Source of the DNA: Leptotrichia hofstadii
GTDB taxonomy: Bacteria; Fusobacteriota; Fusobacteriia; Fusobacteriales; Leptotrichiaceae
Length of the DNA stretch: 64,000 nt
Direction: 5' to 3'
Assembly (NCBI RefSeq): GCF_007990525.1
Contig: NZ_AP019823.1
Coordinates: 1,116,001-1,180,000, forward strand
Shown one piece after another: positions 15,430 to 35,297 of the stretch. Below the pieces are notes generated by a model. It saw only the letters and a list, made by a program, of their open reading frames with translations, had not been told where the DNA came from and made no database searches. Numbering within the stretch: position 1 is the stretch's first letter; every line of letters begins with the position of its first letter. The translations under genes were made by a program, and so were the position numbers.

Positions 15430-15495
15430 TGATTTTAAATTTTTGAGAGAAAGTAATGAATGTTATTTTTTACATTTATTAATGGAGCCATGAAA

Positions 15496-16140
15496 ATGAA
15501 AAAATTTATTTTAATCACTTTGTTTATTCTATTTGTTTTATTCATTTTGCTATATGTAATAATATTTTATGATTATAAAACTTCTGAAAAAACAAAAAAA
15601 TTTATTATGTCCCATTATAATAATAAAAATAAAACTATAAATACTTTTTGTACAGATTATTATCATCTTGGAAAAGTTTATATTGAAAACGGAATTGAGC
15701 ATAGTGAAACATTAAATTTACGAAAAGTAGATAAAAACAAATGGACTGGAAAGTATTATAAATCAACTAATGAAATAGGGGTAGAAACAGAAATTGTATA
15801 TGAAAATGAAAAATATTATGATTCTAAAACAGGAAAAGAAATAAAAGATTTTATACCGTATTTTCAAAGTGACATAATAAAATATGATGAATTGGAGACA
15901 ACAGAAGAAGTAAGTATGGGAATTATATCCGATTATACCCCAAATGAAGGATATTTTCGTGGAAAATATTTAGATAAGAAATCATTCAAGGAATTTTTTA
16001 AAGATTCAGATTGGAATTTAGAAGGAGATATAAAAATAGATGTATATTATCAAAGTATAGAGCCGTTATATTATCAAATGCGACTTGAAACAGAAAATGG
16101 TGAGTTGGTTTTAGGTGAAAAGTGTAGGTATATAAAATAA
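15496..16140 (+). CDS. Membrane-anchored protein of unknown function, paralogue of the next gene
   Basis: About 214 residues with one N-terminal hydrophobic helix (FILITLFILFVLFILLYVIIF) and a polar, presumably extracytoplasmic domain. The ATG at 15496 is preferred because GGAG at 15484-15487 is eight bases away; an open frame extends back to 15460. I recognise no family. It shares with the following gene the pattern N-K-x3-N-x-FC-x2-DY near residue 45, a W-x-GKY element, an IVY-x-N-x-K-x-Y stretch and a YFQ-x3-I element, so the two are diverged tandem duplicates with a conserved cysteine. Confidence 0.7.
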   Translation: MKKFILITLFILFVLFILLYVIIFYDYKTSEKTKKFIMSHYNNKNKTINTFCTDYYHLGKVYIENGIEHSETLNLRKVDKNKWTGKYYKSTNEIGVETEIVYENEKYYDSKTGKEIKDFIPYFQSDIIKYDELETTEEVSMGIISDYTPNEGYFRGKYLDKKSFKEFFKDSDWNLEGDIKIDVYYQSIEPLYYQMRLETENGELVLGEKCRYIK

Positions 16141-16159
16141 AGTTTTAAAAGGAAATGAT

Positions 16160-16804
16160 ATGAAAAAAATACTGCCAATATTAACAATTATATTATTACT
16201 GCTGTTTTTATTATTAATTTATTTTATATATAACGAAACAAAAATATCAAATGAAATTGCAAAAATAGAAGAAAATATAGAAAAATTATATAAAAAAAAT
16301 AAATTGAATGATTTTTGTGAGAAGGATTACAGGCTGGAAATTCGTAAAAATAATTTTTTGATGAAATTGATTTTGGAGAAAAAAAATAATGTTTGGGAAG
16401 GAAAGTATAAATTAAATGATAAAATTTTTGATATTGTATACAGAAATGATAAATTTTATTATAAAAATACCGAAAGAGAAATATCAGAATTAAAAGATTT
16501 TAAATTTTATTTTCAATATGGTAAGATTGAGAAGGGAAAGTTAAAGGATATGCACTTTTTTAACGCTTTTTTGGCTCCAAAAGATTCGTTTTATTATAAA
16601 GAAGGGATAACTGGGAAGTATACTGAACGTAAAAAGGTAAATTTTGATAATAAAGAAACAGAATATGTTACAGAAAATACTTCAACCATTTATATTCGTT
16701 ATGATGTAAATGAGCGAAAAAGCAGTGTTGTAATTGAAGAAATTGGAGAAAATATTAGGGAAGAATGTGGCTTAGGAGAGGAAAGTATGATAAAATTACA
16801 TTAA
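16160..16804 (+). CDS. Membrane-anchored protein of unknown function, paralogue of the preceding gene
   Basis: 214 residues: an N-terminal membrane helix (about residues 4-25), a lysine-rich segment, then a domain aligned by eye with that of the previous gene (NKLNDFCEKDY, WEGKYKL, DIVYRNDKFYY, FYFQYGKI). It lies 19 bases after its paralogue and 33 before smc. AAAGGAAATGAT provides the ribosome site. No catalytic pattern is apparent. A second cysteine near the C-terminus (REECG) has a counterpart in the paralogue (GEKC), so a disulfide outside the membrane is possible. Confidence 0.7.
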   Translation: MKKILPILTIILLLLFLLLIYFIYNETKISNEIAKIEENIEKLYKKNKLNDFCEKDYRLEIRKNNFLMKLILEKKNNVWEGKYKLNDKIFDIVYRNDKFYYKNTEREISELKDFKFYFQYGKIEKGKLKDMHFFNAFLAPKDSFYYKEGITGKYTERKKVNFDNKETEYVTENTSTIYIRYDVNERKSSVVIEEIGENIREECGLGEESMIKLH

Positions 16805-20565: not shown

Positions 20566-21897
20566 GTGAAAAAGTTTTCACATAAATTGGAGATTATGTT
20601 AAAAAAATTATTAGGTTTAATAATGATGCTTGTGTTTTCGGCTATTGGGGTTGCTGAAACAGATATATCACAAATTGCAAGCGATTATCCATATAAGGAT
20701 AGCGCAATAATGGCGACTGTTCTTGGAACGCCTTCAGAACAGCACTACAAGTTCAAAAATCCGAAAGGACCTAAAGTAAGGAAATTTAAGACGACAAAGA
20801 CAATTCCAGAAATACTTAGACAATGGAGTGACTATGAATACGGTGTCTGGACTCAAAAGAAGGAAGCGCCGTTAATGATTATAATTTCAGGAACAGGGTC
20901 GCTTTACAACAGCGGAATGTCACTTTACATGGCAAATGTATTTTATGACAGAGGATACAACGTAATCGCCTTCAGTTCACCAACAACAATGCCCTATATA
21001 GTAAGTCAGAGTAAAAATGCATATGCAGGCTACATAAAAGATGAAACTGTGCAACTGTACGATCTGGTGGAAAAGGCTATTTCAAAGGAAAAGGCTGATG
21101 GCATGAAATTAAATGGAAGAGTGTATATCGGAGGTTACAGCCTAGGTGGATTCCAGTCACTTCAAATTCACGAGCTGGATTCCAAAAAAAATAGAAGAAT
21201 AGGAATAAATAAGTCGCTTATGTTAAATTCGCCAGTTAGCATTCTGACTGCGACACAAAATTTGGACGGCTTTTTAGTAAAAAATGGAATTTACGATGCA
21301 AGAAGCTTGGAAAAATATTTGGATACAATATTTAGCAGACTTATGTATGACAAGTCAATTCAGATAAAGGACATCGAGTTTTCAAACTTGACATCCTCGT
21401 TAGGAAAGCTGGGGCTTGAGGAAAAGGATTTTGAAGTGCTGACAGGACTTCTGTTTAGATTCTATTCAGCAAACATGACTTTTGCGGGGGAAGTTTTTAG
21501 CGGAAATAATGCTGTTGGAAGGCTATCCGATAAAAAGTCATATAAAAGATTTGATTCAGTTACTCAGGAATTTAGGGAAGGATTGTCTGTTTCATTTGAT
21601 GAGTATGCTAAGGAAATATTATATCCATATTTAAAAAAATATAAAAATCCTAATCTTGATTTTAATGATTTTATAAATGAATTTGATTTGAGAAGCAATC
21701 AGGATTTTATCAACAGAAATAATAAAAACATCATATTTATAACATCAACAAATGACGTTCTGTATTCAAATGATGACTTGGATTATATAAAGAACACGTT
21801 TTCAAACAAAGTTTTAATACCGTTTGGAGGGCATACTGGAGTCTTGTGGCATGCTGACGTGGCAAAATTAATGGTAGATAAATTGGAGGAAAAATAA
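20566..21897 (+). CDS. Exported alpha/beta hydrolase, paired with MlaA
   Basis: About 443 residues with an N-terminal signal sequence (LGLIMMLVFSAIGVAE). The start is uncertain: GTG at 20566 has AAAGGAG four bases upstream, while ATG at 20596 gives a more compact signal peptide with GGAG only three bases away. An alpha/beta-hydrolase core is suggested by LMIIISGTGSLYNSG (oxyanion-type loop), the nucleophile elbow GGYSLGGFQS near residue 200, and a late Asp/His region (TSTNDVLY and FGGHTGVLWH). It is three bases from the MlaA gene. A lipase acting with MlaA on mislocalised phospholipids is an attractive inference; the substrate is not known. Confidence 0.75.
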   Translation: MKKFSHKLEIMLKKLLGLIMMLVFSAIGVAETDISQIASDYPYKDSAIMATVLGTPSEQHYKFKNPKGPKVRKFKTTKTIPEILRQWSDYEYGVWTQKKEAPLMIIISGTGSLYNSGMSLYMANVFYDRGYNVIAFSSPTTMPYIVSQSKNAYAGYIKDETVQLYDLVEKAISKEKADGMKLNGRVYIGGYSLGGFQSLQIHELDSKKNRRIGINKSLMLNSPVSILTATQNLDGFLVKNGIYDARSLEKYLDTIFSRLMYDKSIQIKDIEFSNLTSSLGKLGLEEKDFEVLTGLLFRFYSANMTFAGEVFSGNNAVGRLSDKKSYKRFDSVTQEFREGLSVSFDEYAKEILYPYLKKYKNPNLDFNDFINEFDLRSNQDFINRNNKNIIFITSTNDVLYSNDDLDYIKNTFSNKVLIPFGGHTGVLWHADVAKLMVDKLEEK

Positions 21898-21900
21898 AAA

Positions 21901-22881
21901 ATGGCAGGGAAAAATAAATTTATATTGCTGATGGCGTTGCTTACTGCCACGGCAGTTTCTTATTCAAAGGGAAGTGAACTGAAAAATGAGGAAACAGTGA
22001 TGTTTGCTGAAGAAACTGAAAGAGAAGCAAATGACGATATTTATATTGAATTTGTAGATGGAAAGGTCGCTGAAGCGTCTGGAAAAAATCTTGACAAAGT
22101 TTCACGTACAAATATAGCTGTAAAGAAAAATAAGATAGATACCAACAGATATATTGCCTTTGAGCAGGATGGATACGGAGTTCTTGCAACAAATCTGGAA
22201 GAACTGAATGAAGATTACATTGTTTCAAGCCAAGTGTTTCAGCTAACAGGAATCAATGATTCGCTGGAGCCTTTAAATAGAAGGATGTATGCCTTTAATA
22301 CGCAGCTTGACAGAAAAGTGCTTTATCCAGCTTCACGTGTATATTCGGCAGTAGTGCCAAAACCAATTAGAAAGGGAATTTCAAATTTCTATCAGAATTT
22401 TAGTGAAATACCGACATTTGTAAATTCACTGTTGCAGTTAAAACCTGGAAAGGCTGCAAACGCGCTTGGAAGATTTGTGGTAAATTCCACTGCTGGTATC
22501 CTGGGAGTGGCTGATGTCGCTAAAAATATGGGAATGAAAAGAGACCCAGAAACTATGGGAGATACGTTAGGACATTACGGAATGGGGACAGGATCATACT
22601 TAGTGCTGCCCATGTTTGGACCAAGCAACCTGAGAGATGCCTTTGGAAGTGCCATAGATTCTGCTGGAGAAGGTGCGGTACGTGGTATTGCTGAAAAAAA
22701 ACTGTTTTTTGATACAGGCGTATTTGACAAAAATGTTTATGGATTTACAAGACCTGTTGTGACAGGACTGAATGCACGTTCTATGCTCAGCATAAAGTAC
22801 GGAGATTTGAATTCGCCGTTTGAATATGACTTGGTAAAAGCGCTTCATTACAACTATAGAAAAATACAGGTTATAAAATAA
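21901..22881 (+). CDS. mlaA: MlaA/VacJ family outer-membrane lipid-asymmetry protein
   Basis: MlaA removes phospholipids from the outer leaflet of the outer membrane and passes them to the Mla shuttle. The family domain spans about residues 112-300: NDSLEPLNRRMYAFN, PKPIRKGISNFYQNFSEIP, GRFVVNSTAGILGVAD, the GDTLGHYGMGTGSYLVLP block and FGPSNLRDA. The N-terminus has a hydrophobic leader (FILLMALLTATAVSYS) but no lipobox cysteine, so unlike E. coli MlaA it is not an obvious lipoprotein. About 85 extra polar residues precede the domain. Cotranscribed with the upstream hydrolase, with GGAGG in the end of that gene. No MlaBCDEF genes are in view. Confidence 0.88.
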   Translation: MAGKNKFILLMALLTATAVSYSKGSELKNEETVMFAEETEREANDDIYIEFVDGKVAEASGKNLDKVSRTNIAVKKNKIDTNRYIAFEQDGYGVLATNLEELNEDYIVSSQVFQLTGINDSLEPLNRRMYAFNTQLDRKVLYPASRVYSAVVPKPIRKGISNFYQNFSEIPTFVNSLLQLKPGKAANALGRFVVNSTAGILGVADVAKNMGMKRDPETMGDTLGHYGMGTGSYLVLPMFGPSNLRDAFGSAIDSAGEGAVRGIAEKKLFFDTGVFDKNVYGFTRPVVTGLNARSMLSIKYGDLNSPFEYDLVKALHYNYRKIQVIK

Positions 22882-26600: not shown

Positions 26601-26765
26601 TTGTATTTATTAATTAAATGAAATAGAAATATAAATAATATTATTTAAAAATTATAATAATTATAAAAAATATGGATGTATAATTTTTAGATAATTTTAT
26701 TTGCTGTTAGAAACAGTATTCAGGAATAGATGATTTCGATTGTAAAAGATTTCATCACGGCTAAG

Positions 26766-26790
26766 AAAATTAGAAAAATTAGAAAAATTA
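26766..26790 (+). repeat. 9-bp tandem repeat beside the autotransporter ribosome site
   Basis: AAAATTAGA occurs at 26766-26774 and 26775-26783, then a partial third copy AAAATTA at 26784-26790. It lies just before AAAAAAGGAG and the ATG at 26808. Copy-number change would alter the spacing upstream of the ribosome site. Confidence 0.7.
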
Positions 26791-26807
26791 ATAAAAAAGG
26801 AGAAGAA

Positions 26808-29800
26808 ATGACAAACAATTTGAGAAGATTTTCGCAGGATTTACGTGCGTTTGCAAAAAGAACAAAAGATTTCAAATATACGGAATCAGCATTAATCACA
26901 TTTTTAATAACAGGAATGATATTTTCTGCAGGAAAACTGGATGCAGCTCCGAAAGAGCCTACTATAGAAAATCAAAGAAGATCTATTTCTACATCCATAA
27001 CAGATATGCGCCAGAACTTTAAAAGAGTGAAAGCTGAAACTAAAAAATTAATAAAAGACAGCAACATGGAATTGATACAATTGATGGAACAGGGAGATCA
27101 TGTAACAAAAAGTCCTTGGAGCAGCTGGCAATTTGGACAAAACTTTTTCTATGATGACTGGCATGGCGCTTATAAGGGAAGAGGAGATAAGAAAATAAAA
27201 TATCCTTATGAAGGAATTTTTGAAAGAGGGGACAGATACGAAAGGGCAATAAATCCTTTAAGTGACAAGTACGAGGAGATGCCTCTGGCTTCAAGAAAAA
27301 ATGCCGCTTCAAGTTCGCAAAGAACAGGGCTTGTTTCAGATTCGTACGGACTTGTGGGAGTAAAACCTCTTTTAGAACCGACAGTAGGATTTAATGTAAG
27401 CGTTGCAATTAGACCAAAACAGGTTGTAAAAGGAGCAATAACGATTGCAGATAAAACGCCTGCAACACCTGCACAGCCAGAAACAATAATTTTTAACGCT
27501 CCTAATATAAGCGTAACAGCGCCAGCGGCGCCACAAGTGGAACCTGCACAAGTTACAATAAGCTCGTTGACGGTAACACCTCCGATGCTGCCTAGTATTA
27601 CGTTGCCAACGCCACTTTCGTTTACACCGGCTTCACCAACAGTAAATGTAAGTATTCCAACTCCAAATTCTTTGCCAACGCTAAATTTTACAGCGACAGG
27701 TAATGGAGATGAATCATATATGCTAGGTGGAGGTCCTGGGACATGGACTTATACAAAAGGGGCTTCATATTATGCTCCAAGTGACAGGGCGGCAGTTGCG
27801 CTTATGGGTCAGGTAAGTATGAGTTCGGGAACAGTTAGCTACACGGATTCAGGTATTACTATAAATGGAAATTTGACTGGATCAGGTTCAATGGGTGGAA
27901 GCTGGAGTTTTAGTGGAACTCATAGCGTAACAGGATTTACTGGACATGCGCTTATAAAAAATACTGGAGATTATACTTCAAATATAGACAATACAACTAT
28001 AACCTTCAACAGATCGGGAGGTGCTAATTATGATGCATGGCTATTTCACACGGATGCCCATAATAGCAGCGTAGTATCTGCATTTGTCCTAGGAAGTGGA
28101 ACAACAATTAATACAACGGGTAATAAATCTGTTGTATATACTTCTCAATTTCATAATGGAAATTTAAATGCTGAATTTACAAATAATGGAACTATTGATA
28201 TGGGAGGTACTGAGAATATTGTATGGGTAGCATTGAATGAAAATGCAAGAAGCAGACATAAAGACAATATTTTCAGAAATGGCGGAACAATAAAGCTGAA
28301 CAGTTCTAAAAATACGTTTGCATATATAGATATGCCGACTACTATAGGAGCTATTGGTGGAGGCTGGGCTGGAAAAGGAGTTCCAGCAGGCGGTTCTGCA
28401 GGTGGAACTAACGCAGGTAATAGTAACGGTTGGGAAATAATAAGTACAGGAACGTTAGATATAGGCGGGACTCAGAATACAGGAATATTTATAAATGACA
28501 GCTGGAAATACTGGAAGGCTAAGATTGAGCTTGCTGCTGGAGATAAAACTAAAATTTCAGGAACTAAAAATATAGGAACATATTTTAAAGGCTGGGCAGA
28601 TGTCTCTACTTCAAAACTTAATATGCAAATGCCTGGAGATGAAAATGTAGGAATATACCTTGAATACGCAGGTACAGCAACAGATGATGAGTTTAAGTTC
28701 ACAAGCGCTTCAACATTAGATTCAGAAGGCAAGAAAAATGTTTTGATATACAATAAGGCCAGTAAAGCTAATTTTGGAACAAATGTTAATTTAAAAGTTA
28801 ATGGAAAAGAAAATGTTGGGATTGTTAATGAATCTGCACAAGATTTAGTAACTGCCGCAAAAATTGAAACAACAAAAAATTCTGGGGAAGAATCAATTGG
28901 AATATACTCAAAAGGGACAGGTGCAACTACTAATACTGGAAATATAACTATGAAGGCTAAAAAAGTAAAAGGTATTGTAGCTGATAACTCAGGAACTATT
29001 AACAATAATGGTGGAACTATTGCTGTGGAAGGAGATGAAGTTGCAGGTGCAATTGCGATGGGGAATGGAACTGTAAATATTTCGACAGCTTCACCAAGCA
29101 ATGCAACAACGATTACAGTAAAAGGAAAATCAGGACTCGGACTTTATGCAGAAAGTGGCGGTACAATTAATGCAGGCGATGCAACAATTACAAGTTCTGG
29201 AGGTGCCGTAAATGTTTATTCTAATGGTGGGGATATTCATTTAAGCAAAAACAATAAAAAGACTACAGTAAATGTAGGAGCTGATTCACTTGGATTTATG
29301 AGAACGGGAGGTAACCAGATAATATTTGACAGTGCTACAGAACTTAATGTTGCCACAGGCGGATCAGGATTTTATATAACAACATCTCCAGTTCCAACTT
29401 CAGTTTCATATCCTGTAAACATTGCGTCAGAACTTACTGCTGGATATTCGGGACTGAATAAATTGACTGCAAATATGAGTGCAGACTCGAACTTGGTAGT
29501 TGCTTCGTATGCACAAGCTAATTTATCTGATTTGGATCTTTCGGGATATGGTATGACTATAAATGGTACTGGGCATAAAGAATTTTTACTGTACAGAAGT
29601 AAATTGACTCTTGATTCTCCAAAGACTTATAATGATTATAAAAAAATAGCATTATCCAGTTCATCAATTATTAATGATACAGCTATACAGACAGATGATG
29701 ACGGTGTAAAGCTTATGGCACAAGAAAATGATGGCGGTACTGATAAATGGGTAAAACTGGAAAATAAGAAAACTATTGAACTAGGTGGAAAAAATTCAGT

Positions 29801-32800
29801 TGCGATGTATGCGAGCGATGGTACTATAAAAAATCATTCAGGTGCAACTATCACAATGAAAAAAGAAGGATCTGCCGCAATCTTTGGTAAGAATACAGGA
29901 AAAGGTGATACAGAGATTATAAATGATGGAGACATCCAGATTGGTGAAAAATCTGTAGGACTTTTTGCTGAAGATTATACTGAAAAAAATCTTGAAAATG
30001 CAGGTAAAATTGCTATTGTTGGAAACAGCGGAATCGGAATGTACTACAAGGCAGGGGCTTTGACGCAAGATGTAACAATGGAAAATAAAACTGGAGCTGA
30101 GATTAGTGGAACTGAATTGGGTGGAACAACTCCAGCAACATCTGTAAAAAGAGTTGGAATGTACTCAGAAGCTAACAGCAGCAGCAAAAAACTGACTGCT
30201 AAAAACTCGGGAGACATAAAGATTCTCGGAGATGGTGCAAGTTCTATAGGCGATGCTAACATCGGAATGTACACGAATGCAACTGCAGCAGGAACAAATC
30301 CATTGGAAAATGCAGGAACGATTGAACTTGGAAAATATGGAATCGGAATGTATGGATGGGATTTGGATACTAGCGGAGATATAACAGTCGGAGATGGCGG
30401 AGTTGCCATTTATTCACAAGGTGGAGATGTCAATATGACTGCGTCTGGAACTAAAAAGATAAAAGTTGGGAAAGACGCAAGAGGAATTCTTGTTGTAGGA
30501 GACGGTCAGACTGTTACAGCCACTAACTATGAATATGAAATTGGAGATGGGTCTTACGGATTTGTTAATAGAAATTCGGGATCAACAGGAAATACATTTA
30601 CAATAAGTGGCGGAAAGGCTACATTAGGAAACAAAGGTAAATTTATTTACTCAAGTGATACAAAAGGAAATATTACAAACTCAACAGACATGGAAATGCT
30701 AAGTACTGCAACTGATGGAGAAAACTACGGTATTTATGCTACAGGAACTGTAATTAACAGTGGGAAAATCGAATTTACTAAAGGTAAAGGGAATGTAGGT
30801 ATTTATGCTACAGAAGATGGAAACATTACAAACAGTGGAAATATTGAACTTGGAGAATCTGATGCCGCAAACAAGAAGTACAGTATAGGAATTATAGCAA
30901 AACCTGGAAAAGTTACAAACAGCGGAACTGTCAAGATTGGAGATTCAGCTAATTCAATTGACGGAAAAGATGGAATTGGACTGTTTGCAGACAGTGAAAA
31001 TGGAAAAAATGGAGAAATCATAAATACAGGAGCGGTAACTACCGAAGGAGATTCAACTATCGGTGCTTATGCAAATGCAAGTTCAAAAATTAGCCTTGGT
31101 GCAGGCGGAGATATTACCGTAAAGGGAGATAAGACTACTGGATACTATATTGATCAAGGTACAGGAAGCAGCATTGATTCAGGTGTAAGCATAGATGTGA
31201 CAGGAGACAATGCTAATGGTGTATTTGTAAACAAAGGTGGACTGACATACGAAGGGGACACGACTGTAACAGGTGATGGAGCTTACGGATTTGTAGCAGG
31301 TAAAAATTCTTCTGTAACTGCTAACGGCGGAAGCGTTACCGTGTCAGGCGCTTCAGGATCTTCAAAAGCTACAACTGGAACTGGTGGAAGAGGAACTGCA
31401 GGAGTTGTCGCGTTGGCAGGGGCAAATCTGACTGGCGGAAAAATGAATGTAGATGCAGATGTTACAGATGAAGGCTCTGTAGGAATATATTCGGCTGGAA
31501 AAATTGAAATTGACAAGGCTGATATAAAAGCATACAATGGAGCAGTAAACTTCTTTGCTGATAATGGAGGAACTATCTCTGTTGGAAATAATGGTGGCTC
31601 AAGCACAGTCGTAACAGGAACTGGTACTGACAAGGGCTCACTTCTGTTCTACACTCCTGGAGGAAAAGTGCTTATAAACGGTCCTATGACTGCTACTATT
31701 GAAGGTGGAACTAAAGCTACTACACGTGGTACTGCATTCTACTATACTGGTGGAGGGACATTAGGAAATATCGCTTCTTATACGGCATTGACACCTGGGA
31801 ACGTTGCAGCTTGGGCAAGAACTAACTATGGAAACGGTACAACAAGTACGCTTGGTAACTTGACATTAAATATGCAGGCTGATTCAAGACTGTTCCTGAC
31901 TCAAAAAGTTAATATGAATTTGTCAAATACGTCAGTTTCAAACTTGTTTAGCGGTCTTGCCTCAACAGAAAAGCCGACAGTAGGAGGAAGTAACGATTAT
32001 AGAAGATTTATGCTTTATCAAAGTCATCTGAACGTGGATCAGGCAGTAAATCTGGATAATCCAAGCGATGACTACAACCTGCTTGAAATCTCAAACTCAA
32101 GCATAACTAACAATAGCACGATAACAGGAACTCAAGATGGGCAAATTGGTATTGCGCAGGAAAACTCAGACCTTGCTACGCCAAAATCTACAGTAACACT
32201 TATAAATAAAGGGACTATAGACTTGTCTGGTAAAAACTCGGCTGCAATTTATGGGAAAAACGCTATTGTCGTAAATGATACTGCAGGTATCATAAAGATA
32301 GCAAAAAGCTCGACAGGGCTATATGGATTGAGAAATACAGAGATTTATAACAAAGGAAATATTTCGGTAGGAAATAAATCGACAGGAATGTTCTATTCAG
32401 ACGTATTTACAGATCCAGTAACAAGTGCTTTAACAATATACGATACAGAAACAGGGCTTCAAAATACAGGTACAATAACTCTTGATGACGAAGAAGGAGT
32501 TGGAATGACATACGAACCTGGAAATATAACTGTTGCGCCAGTATTTGAAAATGCAGGGACAATTACAAGTACAAAAGATAAGAATGTCGGAATGTATGCA
32601 AAAGTCGCAAAAAATAATATTTCATACGACACAGTAAACAGCAAAGTAATCACATTTGGAGATTCTGCTTCGCTTGCTGACCCTAATGTGGCAATGTATA
32701 CAAATGCAGCTGGAACTGGTACAAATCCGCTTATAAATAACGGAGATATAACAATCGGAAAAAATGCCGTTGGAATATATGGATTTGAAGAAGTGAACAA

Positions 32801-35297
32801 TAAAAACATAACTGTAGGCGATGGATCTGTCGCAATGTACTCTAAAGGAGGAAATGTTGACTTAAATTCAGGGACTATTAAGGTTGGAAAAAATGAAGCT
32901 GTCGGAGTGTATACAGTTGGAAGCGGACAGCAGATTACAAATACAGGAACAGCGTTTGACATAGGGGATACTTCGTTCGGATTTGTAAATGTTGGAACAG
33001 GGAATACGATTGAAAGCAATATTTCAGATGTAACACTGAAGAATGATTCGGTTTACGCATATTCAAATGATACTTCTGGAATAATCAGAAATAATACAAA
33101 CTTGACATCAGTAGGTACGAATGGAAATAACTATGGTATTTACGCTGCAGGGACAATTGAAAATAACGGAAATATTGACTTTAATACAGGAATAGGAAAT
33201 GTCGGTGTTTATTCTGTAAAAAATGGAAATGCGAGAAATACTGGTACAATATCTGTTGGGGGATCTGATCCTATTAACAAGATATTCAGTGTCGGAATGG
33301 CCGCTGGATATATAGGGGATTCCAGCACGCCTGCAACTACTGGAAATATTGAGAACAACGGAACAATCAACGTAAACGGAAAATACAGCATAGGAATGTA
33401 CGGTGTTGGAGCAGGAACTACAGTTACAAACAACAGTGACATTGTATTAAATGCAAACAACACAATAGGTATTTACGTTGAGGAAGGTGCAAAGGCTATA
33501 AATAACGGTTCGATAAGAACAGGTGCAAGCGGGCTGTCAAGCGTGACAGGAGTTGTGCTTAGCAAAAATTCAACTTTGGATAATAGAGGTACGATAGATA
33601 TTGACTCAAGATCTGGAGTAGGAGTGTATCTTAAAGGTGGAACAATTATCAACCGTGGACGTATAAATGTAACTGGAAAAGGAGCTGTGGAAGAGTACGA
33701 CATGGCTAAGAATGCCACTTCAAAACCTATGGGAGATGTAATAATTGATGCTCCTGCAGGATCGCCAACTGCTAAAATAATAGTAGCTGGAAAAGGTGAA
33801 GTTCAGCCTACATTAGTTACAACTACAGCAGAAAATCCAATAACAGTGTCGGCTTCAAGCATAGGGCTTTATGTAGATACTTCCAGCAAAAATTATACTC
33901 AGGCGATTGATAATCTAGGAGCATTGACAGGCGAGGCTGATCTGATAATAGGAGTAGAGGCGGCAGAAAATACGGCAAGCAAATATATTCAGATAAATGA
34001 CAGAAATATCCTGGATCCATATAACAGGGCAATCGTGTACGGTGGAGTTGCAAAATGGACAGTCTATTCTGGAGCGTTGACTTGGATGGCTACACCGACT
34101 CTTGATCCTGACACAGGAGAAATTACAAATCTGTACATGGCGAAAGCGGCATATACTAACTGGGCCTCTAACAGCAAAGTAACTCCAACAAAAGTTACAG
34201 ATACATACAATTTTGCTGACGGGCTGGAACAAAGATATGGAGTTAAGCCGCTTGGAACTAGGGAAAATCAAATATTCCAAAAATTAAATTCAATTGGAAA
34301 TAATGAAGAAATCCTTCTGTACCAAGCTTTTGACGAAATGATGGGACATCAGTACGGTAATCTGCAGCAAAGAATCAGCAAAACTGGAAGCCTTCTGGAT
34401 AAAGAGTTCAACCACTTGAGAAAAGACTGGAGAAAACCATCTAAGGACAACAACAAAATTAAGGTATTCGGTATGAGGGACGAATATAATTCTGATACTG
34501 CCGGAGTAATTGACAACACTAGCAACGCTTACGGATTTGCTTATGTTCATGAAAATGATACAGTAAAATTAGGAAACAGTTCAGGATGGTATGCCGGAGC
34601 GGTAACTAACAGATTCAGATTCAAGGATATTGGACATTCTAAAGAAAATCAGTCAATGATTAAGGCAGGAGTATTCAAGACAATGTCGCCTAAAAATGAC
34701 CATAACGGTTCATTAAGATGGACTATCTCGGGAGATGTGTATGCTGGAATTAATGATATGAAACGTAGATATCTTGTAGTAGATGAAGTATTTGAAGCAA
34801 AATCTGACTACCGTACTTATGGAGCGGCAGTTAAGAATGAGCTTGGATATAACATAAGAATGAGCGAGAGAACACATTTACGTCCTTATGGAGCATTAAA
34901 GATGGAATACGGAAGATTTAACAACATAAAAGAAGACAGAGGGGAAATGCGTCTGGAAGTAAAAGGAAACGACTACTTCTCAGTAAAACCTGAAGTTGGA
35001 ATGGAATTCAGATATGTACAGCCATTGGCAGTAAGAACAAATTTATCGGTAGGACTGACAGCGGCTTATGAAAACGAACTAGGAAAAGTTGGAGAAAATA
35101 ACAACAAGGCAAGAGTAAGATATACAAATGCCGACTGGTTTGGAATAAGAGGCGAAAAGGATGACAGAAAAGGAAGCGGTAAGTTTGACTTGAATATCGG
35201 AATTGATAATACGAGATTTGGAGTGACTGTAAATGCCGGATATGACACTAAAGGTAAAAATGTAAGAGGTGGAATAGGATTCAGGGCTATTTACTAA
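26808..35297 (+). CDS. Giant type V autotransporter (adhesin-like), Leptotrichia/Fusobacterium type
   Basis: About 2,829 residues from the ATG at 26808, which has AAAGGAGAAG ahead of it; the open frame reaches back to 26730 without a ribosome site. Order: an extended charged N-region with a hydrophobic stretch (MTNNLRRFSQD...ALITFLITGMIFSAG) typical of fusobacterial autotransporters; a conserved WSSWQFGQNFFYDDWHG segment; a Pro/Thr-rich linker near residues 220-310; then about 2,100 residues of Gly/Asn/Thr-rich beta-helix repeats of the form NxGxIxxGxxxxGIY; and a C-terminal beta-barrel of about 280 residues ending GGIGFRAIY. The passenger contains a roughly 800-residue internal duplication. 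Cysteine is essentially absent. Function is probably adhesion or surface coat, by family. Confidence 0.93.
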   Translation: MTNNLRRFSQDLRAFAKRTKDFKYTESALITFLITGMIFSAGKLDAAPKEPTIENQRRSISTSITDMRQNFKRVKAETKKLIKDSNMELIQLMEQGDHVTKSPWSSWQFGQNFFYDDWHGAYKGRGDKKIKYPYEGIFERGDRYERAINPLSDKYEEMPLASRKNAASSSQRTGLVSDSYGLVGVKPLLEPTVGFNVSVAIRPKQVVKGAITIADKTPATPAQPETIIFNAPNISVTAPAAPQVEPAQVTISSLTVTPPMLPSITLPTPLSFTPASPTVNVSIPTPNSLPTLNFTATGNGDESYMLGGGPGTWTYTKGASYYAPSDRAAVALMGQVSMSSGTVSYTDSGITINGNLTGSGSMGGSWSFSGTHSVTGFTGHALIKNTGDYTSNIDNTTITFNRSGGANYDAWLFHTDAHNSSVVSAFVLGSGTTINTTGNKSVVYTSQFHNGNLNAEFTNNGTIDMGGTENIVWVALNENARSRHKDNIFRNGGTIKLNSSKNTFAYIDMPTTIGAIGGGWAGKGVPAGGSAGGTNAGNSNGWEIISTGTLDIGGTQNTGIFINDSWKYWKAKIELAAGDKTKISGTKNIGTYFKGWADVSTSKLNMQMPGDENVGIYLEYAGTATDDEFKFTSASTLDSEGKKNVLIYNKASKANFGTNVNLKVNGKENVGIVNESAQDLVTAAKIETTKNSGEESIGIYSKGTGATTNTGNITMKAKKVKGIVADNSGTINNNGGTIAVEGDEVAGAIAMGNGTVNISTASPSNATTITVKGKSGLGLYAESGGTINAGDATITSSGGAVNVYSNGGDIHLSKNNKKTTVNVGADSLGFMRTGGNQIIFDSATELNVATGGSGFYITTSPVPTSVSYPVNIASELTAGYSGLNKLTANMSADSNLVVASYAQANLSDLDLSGYGMTINGTGHKEFLLYRSKLTLDSPKTYNDYKKIALSSSSIINDTAIQTDDDGVKLMAQENDGGTDKWVKLENKKTIELGGKNSVAMYASDGTIKNHSGATITMKKEGSAAIFGKNTGKGDTEIINDGDIQIGEKSVGLFAEDYTEKNLENAGKIAIVGNSGIGMYYKAGALTQDVTMENKTGAEISGTELGGTTPATSVKRVGMYSEANSSSKKLTAKNSGDIKILGDGASSIGDANIGMYTNATAAGTNPLENAGTIELGKYGIGMYGWDLDTSGDITVGDGGVAIYSQGGDVNMTASGTKKIKVGKDARGILVVGDGQTVTATNYEYEIGDGSYGFVNRNSGSTGNTFTISGGKATLGNKGKFIYSSDTKGNITNSTDMEMLSTATDGENYGIYATGTVINSGKIEFTKGKGNVGIYATEDGNITNSGNIELGESDAANKKYSIGIIAKPGKVTNSGTVKIGDSANSIDGKDGIGLFADSENGKNGEIINTGAVTTEGDSTIGAYANASSKISLGAGGDITVKGDKTTGYYIDQGTGSSIDSGVSIDVTGDNANGVFVNKGGLTYEGDTTVTGDGAYGFVAGKNSSVTANGGSVTVSGASGSSKATTGTGGRGTAGVVALAGANLTGGKMNVDADVTDEGSVGIYSAGKIEIDKADIKAYNGAVNFFADNGGTISVGNNGGSSTVVTGTGTDKGSLLFYTPGGKVLINGPMTATIEGGTKATTRGTAFYYTGGGTLGNIASYTALTPGNVAAWARTNYGNGTTSTLGNLTLNMQADSRLFLTQKVNMNLSNTSVSNLFSGLASTEKPTVGGSNDYRRFMLYQSHLNVDQAVNLDNPSDDYNLLEISNSSITNNSTITGTQDGQIGIAQENSDLATPKSTVTLINKGTIDLSGKNSAAIYGKNAIVVNDTAGIIKIAKSSTGLYGLRNTEIYNKGNISVGNKSTGMFYSDVFTDPVTSALTIYDTETGLQNTGTITLDDEEGVGMTYEPGNITVAPVFENAGTITSTKDKNVGMYAKVAKNNISYDTVNSKVITFGDSASLADPNVAMYTNAAGTGTNPLINNGDITIGKNAVGIYGFEEVNNKNITVGDGSVAMYSKGGNVDLNSGTIKVGKNEAVGVYTVGSGQQITNTGTAFDIGDTSFGFVNVGTGNTIESNISDVTLKNDSVYAYSNDTSGIIRNNTNLTSVGTNGNNYGIYAAGTIENNGNIDFNTGIGNVGVYSVKNGNARNTGTISVGGSDPINKIFSVGMAAGYIGDSSTPATTGNIENNGTINVNGKYSIGMYGVGAGTTVTNNSDIVLNANNTIGIYVEEGAKAINNGSIRTGASGLSSVTGVVLSKNSTLDNRGTIDIDSRSGVGVYLKGGTIINRGRINVTGKGAVEEYDMAKNATSKPMGDVIIDAPAGSPTAKIIVAGKGEVQPTLVTTTAENPITVSASSIGLYVDTSSKNYTQAIDNLGALTGEADLIIGVEAAENTASKYIQINDRNILDPYNRAIVYGGVAKWTVYSGALTWMATPTLDPDTGEITNLYMAKAAYTNWASNSKVTPTKVTDTYNFADGLEQRYGVKPLGTRENQIFQKLNSIGNNEEILLYQAFDEMMGHQYGNLQQRISKTGSLLDKEFNHLRKDWRKPSKDNNKIKVFGMRDEYNSDTAGVIDNTSNAYGFAYVHENDTVKLGNSSGWYAGAVTNRFRFKDIGHSKENQSMIKAGVFKTMSPKNDHNGSLRWTISGDVYAGINDMKRRYLVVDEVFEAKSDYRTYGAAVKNELGYNIRMSERTHLRPYGALKMEYGRFNNIKEDRGEMRLEVKGNDYFSVKPEVGMEFRYVQPLAVRTNLSVGLTAAYENELGKVGENNNKARVRYTNADWFGIRGEKDDRKGSGKFDLNIGIDNTRFGVTVNAGYDTKGKNVRGGIGFRAIY
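29150..33420 (+). repeat. Large internal duplication in the autotransporter passenger
   Basis: Two modules, about 29.15-30.98 kb and 31.48-33.42 kb, align in order with an offset of about 2.4 kb. Matching landmarks: GAVNVYSNGGDI and GAVNFFADNGGTI; LTANMSADSNL and LTLNMQADSRL; FLLYRSKL and FMLYQSHL; MAQENDGG and IAQENSDL; MYTNATAAGTNPL and MYTNAAGTGTNPL; VAIYSQGGDV and VAMYSKGGNV; ENYGIYATGT and NNYGIYAAGT. Identity is moderate, so the duplication is old. Confidence 0.8.

What the first reader, a model, noticed from the sequence alone, without database searches (positions are those of the whole stretch)
20566..22881. Exported alpha/beta hydrolase fused by operon to an MlaA with no lipobox
A secreted protein with a GYSLGG nucleophile elbow lies three bases from mlaA. 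MlaA pulls stray phospholipids from the outer leaflet; a companion lipase could destroy them on the spot and make a shuttle to the inner membrane less necessary. This MlaA also has about 85 extra residues ahead of its domain and no cysteine for lipidation.
Basis: inference. Interest (0 to 1): 0.52.

Follow-up and report, generated by a model that had tools for sequence, protein, structure and literature searches.

The report
Lipid-removing MlaYZ pair in Fusobacteriota
Two neighbouring genes most likely make a lipid extractor and a partner enzyme that digests misplaced lipids on the spot, a known pairing from Pseudomonas that here appears to replace the usual lipid-return transporter in two bacterial families.

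Summary
In detail: an exported alpha/beta hydrolase (20596-21897) ends three bases before an MlaA-family gene (21901-22881) with no lipobox. The pair is conserved: of 98 Fusobacteriota genomes, 77 have both, 1 has the hydrolase alone (contig end), 20 have neither; 76 of the 77 keep them adjacent. One genome encodes both as a single 681-residue protein.

It is not a new kind. It matches Pseudomonas aeruginosa MlaY-MlaZ (phospholipase plus MlaA-like protein; Guest et al. 2023, known to me only through later papers): same order, same 3-base gap, conserved triad, and a shared MlaA subclade and C-terminal signature absent from ten other MlaA-family proteins.

What seems distinctive is the setting. 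P. aeruginosa also has a canonical Mla pathway. None of the 77 fusobacterial genomes with MlaA has MlaD, MlaE, MlaC or PldA over Pfam cut-offs, while four deep-branching relatives have MlaD/MlaE and lack this pair. So MlaYZ may be the only recognised lipid-asymmetry system in Leptotrichiaceae and Fusobacteriaceae. Lipid hydrolysis is inferred, not shown. The missing lipobox is ordinary.

The parts
20596..21897 (+). MlaY-type exported alpha/beta hydrolase (433 aa; alternative start GTG 20566)
   Evidence: alpha/beta hydrolase model pLDDT 86.4; 29% identity over 355 aa to the P. aeruginosa hydrolase of the same arrangement, E 9e-39
21139..21141 (+). Nucleophile Ser182 codon (GYSLGG)
   Evidence: S in 66 of 66 aligned hydrolases; aligns with MlaY Ser187
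21754..21756 (+). Candidate triad acid Asp387 codon
   Evidence: D in 33 and E in 33 of 66; aligns with MlaY Asp388. The residue before it (N386 here) is D in 54 and N in 12 of 66
21832..21834 (+). Triad His413 codon (GGH)
   Evidence: H in 66 of 66; aligns with MlaY His415
21901..22881 (+). MlaZ-type MlaA-family protein (326 aa), signal peptide without lipobox
   Evidence: PF04333 198.5 bits; 39% identity over 208 aa to P. aeruginosa MlaZ, E 7e-49; fold match 5nuo TMt 0.79
21958..22245 (+). N-terminal extension of MlaZ (residues 20-115), predicted disordered
   Evidence: pLDDT under 50 throughout
22255..22863 (+). MlaA domain (residues 119-321)
22282..22284 (+). Arg128 codon, MlaZ-clade signature
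   Evidence: R in 16 of 16 hydrolase-linked MlaAs, 0 of 10 others
22816..22827 (+). PFEY codons (residues 306-309), MlaZ-clade signature
   Evidence: F307 and E308 in 16 of 16 hydrolase-linked MlaAs and 0 of 10 others, which have D at the F position

Best explanation
The pair is an MlaYZ unit. MlaZ (21901-22881), a ring-shaped helical MlaA-family protein in the outer membrane, takes phospholipids that have strayed into the outer leaflet and passes them to the exported hydrolase MlaY (20596-21897), which cleaves the acyl esters with a Ser182-Asp387-His413 triad. The products are recycled or lost, so no MlaC shuttle and no MlaFEDB transporter are needed. In Leptotrichiaceae and Fusobacteriaceae this appears to be the only recognised system of this purpose. 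Shown: homology, adjacency, conserved triad residues, joint absence, one natural fusion, absence of MlaC/MlaD/MlaE/PldA by Pfam search. Inferred: localisation, lipid hand-over, phospholipase activity, physiological role.
For: Co-occurrence 77 of 98, hydrolase only 1 of 98 (contig end), neither 20 of 98; adjacent with the hydrolase upstream in 76 of 77. Gene fusion in 1 of 77 (G051, L074:4297-6339 minus, 681 aa; the linker has no signal peptide in its frame and the other frames give no such stretch, so not a simple frameshift). No MlaC 0 of 98, no PldA 0 of 98, MlaE 5 and MlaD over cut-off 4 of 98, none of them in a genome with MlaA (11, 15, 16). Homology to the P. aeruginosa pair: hydrolase E 9e-39, MlaA E 7e-49, same order and 3-base gap. 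Triad columns conserved in 66 of 66 (acid as D or E) and in register with MlaY Ser187, Asp388, His415 as cited in PMC11977310. MlaA tree: the 14 fusobacterial rows plus 2 hydrolase-linked proteobacterial rows separate from 10 other MlaA rows with support 96/94 (88). Flanks differ between the two families while the pair stays.
Against: No enzymatic or genetic data for any fusobacterial member. Related hydrolases occur in 51 of 290 Bdellovibrionota genomes, where MlaA is found in 0 of 290, so the enzyme family does not always need MlaA (34, 93). One fusobacterial genome (G041) keeps both genes apart. Nine Leptotrichiaceae genomes that are 92-99% complete (G065, G082, G083, G091-G096) lack both genes and show no MlaD over cut-off, MlaE or MlaC, so the function can be dispensed with. 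The exclusion of MlaDE may reflect a single historical event rather than repeated replacement. Pfam absence does not exclude a highly diverged substitute; TamB-like proteins are present in 73 of 98.
Confidence: 0.78

Rival explanations
1. MlaA here works as a canonical MlaA and hands intact phospholipids to an unrecognised carrier or to a TamB/AsmA-like bridge for return to the inner membrane; the hydrolase is an accessory esterase.
For: TamB family in 73 of 98 genomes, including the window's own genome. The MlaA fold is conserved.
Against: No MlaC in 98 genomes and no MlaD over cut-off or MlaE in any genome with MlaA. This MlaA lies in the hydrolase-linked clade and lacks residues shared by ten other MlaA-family proteins. 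The hydrolase is never missing where MlaA is present (0 of 77).
Confidence: 0.1
2. The hydrolase acts on something other than outer-leaflet glycerophospholipid, for example lysophospholipid, lipid A acyl chains, lipoprotein acyl groups or an imported ester, and MlaA supplies that substrate.
For: Fold matches are to esterases and lipases of many substrates; fold alone does not tell the substrate. Homologues without MlaA exist in Bdellovibrionota.
Against: Reported role of the homologous MlaY as a phospholipase in P. aeruginosa (passages of PMC11977310, PMC12569750, PMC11131202). MlaA-family proteins are phospholipid channels by prior knowledge.
Confidence: 0.1
3. The adjacency is an accident of operon structure with no functional link.
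For: Genes in compact genomes are often packed closely (general knowledge).
Against: 76 of 77 adjacent in two families with different flanking genes, joint absence, a gene fusion, and the same arrangement in P. aeruginosa and Skermanella.
Confidence: 0.02

Closest known systems
MlaYZ of Pseudomonas aeruginosa (PA3238/PA3239; Guest et al. 2023, cited in PMC12569750, PMC11131202, PMC11977310)
   Same: Order hydrolase then MlaA-family gene, 3-base gap, homologous proteins, same triad register, MlaZ without lipobox
   Different: P. aeruginosa also has canonical MlaA and MlaBCDEF (PMC11977310, PMC12569750); these Fusobacteriota have neither MlaC nor MlaD/MlaE with it. Fusobacterial MlaY carries no clear lipobox, whereas P. 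aeruginosa MlaY is called an outer-membrane lipoprotein (PMC10474453). One fusobacterial genome has the two fused.
Canonical Mla pathway (MlaA-MlaC-MlaFEDB)
   Same: MlaA fold and PF04333 match
   Different: MlaC absent in 98 of 98 genomes; MlaD/MlaE absent wherever MlaA occurs; different MlaA subclade and C-terminal signature
PldA (OMPLA), outer-membrane phospholipase
   Same: Proposed outcome: destruction of outer-leaflet phospholipid
   Different: PldA is a beta-barrel of another fold (recalled); PF02253 is absent in 98 of 98
Minimal MlaEFD with long MlaD (Veillonella; PMC10665443)
   Same: Another departure from the E. coli scheme
   Different: That system lacks MlaA and keeps the transporter; this one keeps an MlaA and lacks the transporter. 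Four Fusobacteriota genomes of other families have MlaD/MlaE without MlaA

Membership tests
MlaYZ | Exported alpha/beta hydrolase homologous to MlaY | tested here: met
   29% identity over 355 aa, E 9e-39; fold
MlaYZ | Ser-Asp-His triad in register with MlaY Ser187/Asp388/His415 | tested here: met
   Window Ser182, Asp387, His413 align with them; 66 of 66 S, 66 of 66 H, 66 of 66 D or E
MlaYZ | Adjacent MlaA-family protein of the MlaZ clade | tested here: met
   Branch support 96/94 against ten other MlaA rows; R128, F307, E308 in 16 of 16 against 0 of 10
MlaYZ | Phospholipase activity of MlaY fed by MlaZ | not testable with these tools
   Needs an assay
Canonical Mla pathway | MlaA domain | tested here: met
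   PF04333 198.5 bits; 5nuo TMt 0.79
Canonical Mla pathway | MlaC carrier in the genome | tested here: not met
   PF05494 0 of 98, control found in E. coli and Caulobacter
Canonical Mla pathway | MlaD and MlaE in the genome | tested here: not met
   PF02405: none in the window's genome. PF02470: 20.5 bits, below the cut-off of 25.1, in an MreC-like frame
PldA | PF02253 domain | tested here: not met
   0 of 98 genomes

The most novel reading that the evidence does not exclude
Leptotrichiaceae and Fusobacteriaceae dropped an ancestral MlaDE-type transporter and now keep outer-membrane lipid asymmetry only by extract-and-digest through MlaYZ, so these Gram-negative lineages would run without any retrograde phospholipid transporter; the natural MlaY-MlaZ fusion would be a single-chain lipid extractor and lipase.
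Probability: 0.45. Interest if true: 0.66.

Novelty: new member of a known kind. Interest (0 to 1): 0.48.

Why it matters
Whether MlaYZ can maintain lipid asymmetry alone cannot be read from P. aeruginosa, which also has the canonical pathway. These genomes look like a natural test: MlaYZ is present while the transporter, its carrier and PldA are not detected. The fusion implies that enzyme and extractor act in one compartment at equal dose, and the five signature residues give a simple sequence test to sort MlaA-family proteins into lipase-linked and other forms. It also suggests that the Fusobacterium nucleatum gene called vacJ and listed as a potential virulence factor (PMC1924603, passages) is better read as mlaZ of such a pair.

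Tried and rejected
MlaD in the window's genome: the only match (20.5 bits, below cut-off) lies in an MreC-like reading frame, rejected on reading the sequence; the name MreC is recalled and no separate MreC search was run. MlaE in G047: a fragment at a contig end of a 250-contig assembly, left as unsure. Joint model of hydrolase and MlaA: alignments A4 and A5 placed the last part of many hydrolases on MlaA, so no joint model was made and the two proteins were folded singly. Neighbours in Bdellovibrionota: none of the 13 loci inspected (L114 and L116-L127; flanks of about 1.5 to 3 kb, some cut by contig ends or runs of N) holds an MlaA next to the hydrolase. Foldseek and VIA-align give many esterases and lipases with no single closest family. 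The promoter and terminator scan found no more promoter-like sites than shuffles (8 against a mean of 9.9) and decided nothing. Guest et al. 2023 is not held, so I could not check whether it already discusses Fusobacteriota; the review PMC11131202 says that it built an MlaA tree from 56 Gram-negative proteomes of diverse phyla. Paper searches for a fusobacterial Mla or MlaY link. The listings showed a VacJ homolog named in an F. nucleatum genome paper but no paper on a fusobacterial MlaY; one search listed only 8 of 2,554 papers and is not conclusive.

Weak points: the ten comparison MlaAs come from plasmid records, and only some (E. coli, K. pneumoniae) are annotated mlaA; the signature columns were picked after grouping. 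In some searches the rows from loci were cut one residue short at the C-terminus by my end coordinates. In one search the lipobox patterns miss some likely cases (for example in L033-L036) and used an upstream start for the P. aeruginosa hydrolase.

Full report
Observation. The window lies in a genome of family f1; f1 is Leptotrichiaceae, since contig lengths tie G068 to L112, titled Leptotrichiaceae bacterium, and f2 is Fusobacteriaceae, since G016 ties to L101, Fusobacterium gastrosuis. A hydrolase frame ends at 21897 and an MlaA-family frame runs from 21901 to 22881. MlaA matches PF04333 with 198.5 bits; the hydrolase reaches only a sub-threshold Abhydrolase_1 match. Its predicted structure is good (pLDDT 86.4, pTM 0.87) and matches alpha/beta hydrolases, lipases and esterases in the PDB (VIA-align Z up to 19.4 with rmsd 3.6 over 242 residues). 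The MlaA model has a well predicted helical domain that matches solved MlaA (5nuo_B, E 2.4e-9, TMt 0.79) behind a disordered stretch at residues 20-115.

Conservation. Of 98 Fusobacteriota genomes, 78 have the hydrolase and 77 have MlaA. All 77 with MlaA have the hydrolase; the one hydrolase-only genome, G013, has it at a contig end; 20 have neither. In 76 of the 77 the two are adjacent, same strand, hydrolase first; G041 is the exception and keeps both genes at separate places. G056 has two tandem pairs. In G051 both lie in one frame of 690 codons (681 residues from the first Met), joined by a linker without a signal peptide, and the other two frames of the linker show none either. Flanking genes differ: smc and/or glyA in most f1 loci; M20 peptidase, PALP enzyme or LPG_synthase_C genes in most f2 loci with enough flank.

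Missing partners. MlaC: 0 of 98. PldA: 0 of 98. MlaE: 5 of 98. MlaD over cut-off: 4 of 98; four further sub-threshold MlaD matches (20.5-21.2 bits) are all in the window's genus, and the window's own one is an MreC-like frame. The four genomes with both MlaD and MlaE (G001, G063, G064, G097; families f3-f6) lack MlaA and the hydrolase; the fifth MlaE is a contig-end fragment in G047, which also lacks MlaA and the hydrolase. So 0 of 77 genomes with MlaA has MlaD over cut-off or MlaE. TamB-like proteins are found in 73 of 98. Genomes are related, so these counts are not independent events. Nine Leptotrichiaceae genomes that are 92-99% complete (G065, G082, G083, G091-G096) lack both genes and show no MlaD over cut-off, MlaE or MlaC.

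What it is. A paper search led to P. aeruginosa MlaY and MlaZ. [quoted passage not shown] PMC11131202 says the same, PMC10925693 calls it a compensatory system in species that lack PldA, and PMC11977310 gives the MlaY active site as Ser187, His415 and Asp388. The original paper is not held. A tblastn search of plasmid records with a fusobacterial hydrolase found P. aeruginosa, Skermanella and Fusobacterium vincentii records (6 of 72,556). In P. aeruginosa NZ_CP042268.1 the hydrolase is followed after three bases by a VacJ family gene; in Skermanella rosea a VacJ gene also follows, then a TamB gene. That the P. aeruginosa pair is PA3238/PA3239 rests on the matching active-site numbering and arrangement. 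The window proteins match this pair: hydrolase 29% over 355 aa, E 9e-39; MlaA 39% over 208 aa, E 7e-49. In the tblastn search with the window MlaA, the best hits outside Fusobacteriota were these hydrolase-linked genes, aligned through residue 324, whereas the other listed MlaA-family hits outside Fusobacteriota ended at residue 293 or before (60 of 69 records listed).

Tests of membership. Across 66 aligned hydrolases Ser182 and His413 are invariant and position 387 is D in 33 and E in 33; these align with MlaY Ser187, His415 and Asp388. Position 386 is D in 54 and N in 12, the window among the latter, so which of the two neighbouring positions is the catalytic acid remains open for members with D-E. 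In a tree of 26 MlaA-family domains the 14 fusobacterial rows and the 2 proteobacterial hydrolase-linked rows form one side of a branch (96/94) and the 10 others the other side; several end branches are long, and the P. aeruginosa row falls among the fusobacterial rows. R128, F307 and E308 are in 16 of 16 hydrolase-linked rows and Y300 and P306 in 15 of 16, each in 0 of 10 others (columns chosen after grouping). The hydrolase-linked proteins end soon after this motif, while most of the ten others carry a tail. I recall that the C-terminal part of MlaA has been linked to MlaC binding; the review searched did not give this, so it is only a lead.

Lipobox. Of 61 distinct fusobacterial pairs, MlaZ has a lipobox-like sequence in 20 of 38 Fusobacteriaceae and 3 of 23 Leptotrichiaceae, and MlaY in 0 of 38 and 1 of 23, by simple patterns that miss some. 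P. aeruginosa MlaZ has none, and MlaA proteins without a lipoprotein signal are reported in several genera (PMC11131202, section 7). The missing lipobox is therefore ordinary.

Outside Fusobacteriota. Related hydrolases are in 51 of 290 Bdellovibrionota genomes, none of the 13 loci inspected has MlaA beside it, and MlaA was found in 0 of 290 genomes of that phylum. The enzyme family is thus broader than the pair.

Mechanism and limits. Best reading: MlaZ extracts stray outer-leaflet phospholipid and MlaY hydrolyses it, replacing the return shuttle. The conserved pairing, the fusion and the homology carry this; activity, contact and localisation are inferred. PMC10665443 (passages) reports MlaABC mostly in Proteobacteria and MlaEFD as the ancestral core; its main text has no mention of Fusobacteri-. 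The presence of MlaD/MlaE in the other Fusobacteriota families (f3-f6) fits a replacement, but I did not build a species tree, and calling those families deep-branching rests on the kinship labels alone.

Noticed in passing
L087:6660-7526, L085:5010-6392 and similar Fusobacteriaceae loci: The pair is often followed by an M20 peptidase and/or a gene with LPG_synthase_C (phosphatidylglycerol lysyltransferase C-terminal, PF09924), a possible link to phospholipid modification.
   Followed up: partly
L082:2204-3115: In G041 mlaZ is separated from mlaY and instead follows a 304-codon exported ORF of repeat-like sequence.
   Followed up: no
L077:3963-7346 (minus strand): G056 carries two tandem copies of the hydrolase-MlaA pair.
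   Followed up: no
L131:1-9215: In Skermanella rosea the pair lies between RND efflux genes and a TamB gene on a plasmid.
   Followed up: no
L114 and L116-L127: Bdellovibrionota encode related exported hydrolases although no MlaA was found in 290 genomes.
   Followed up: partly
window 26730-35297: A 2855-residue repetitive ORF ending in a beta-barrel-like stretch, probably an autotransporter (by eye).
   Followed up: no
window 15460-16804: Two adjacent small proteins with an N-terminal hydrophobic segment and no Pfam match over cut-off.
   Followed up: no
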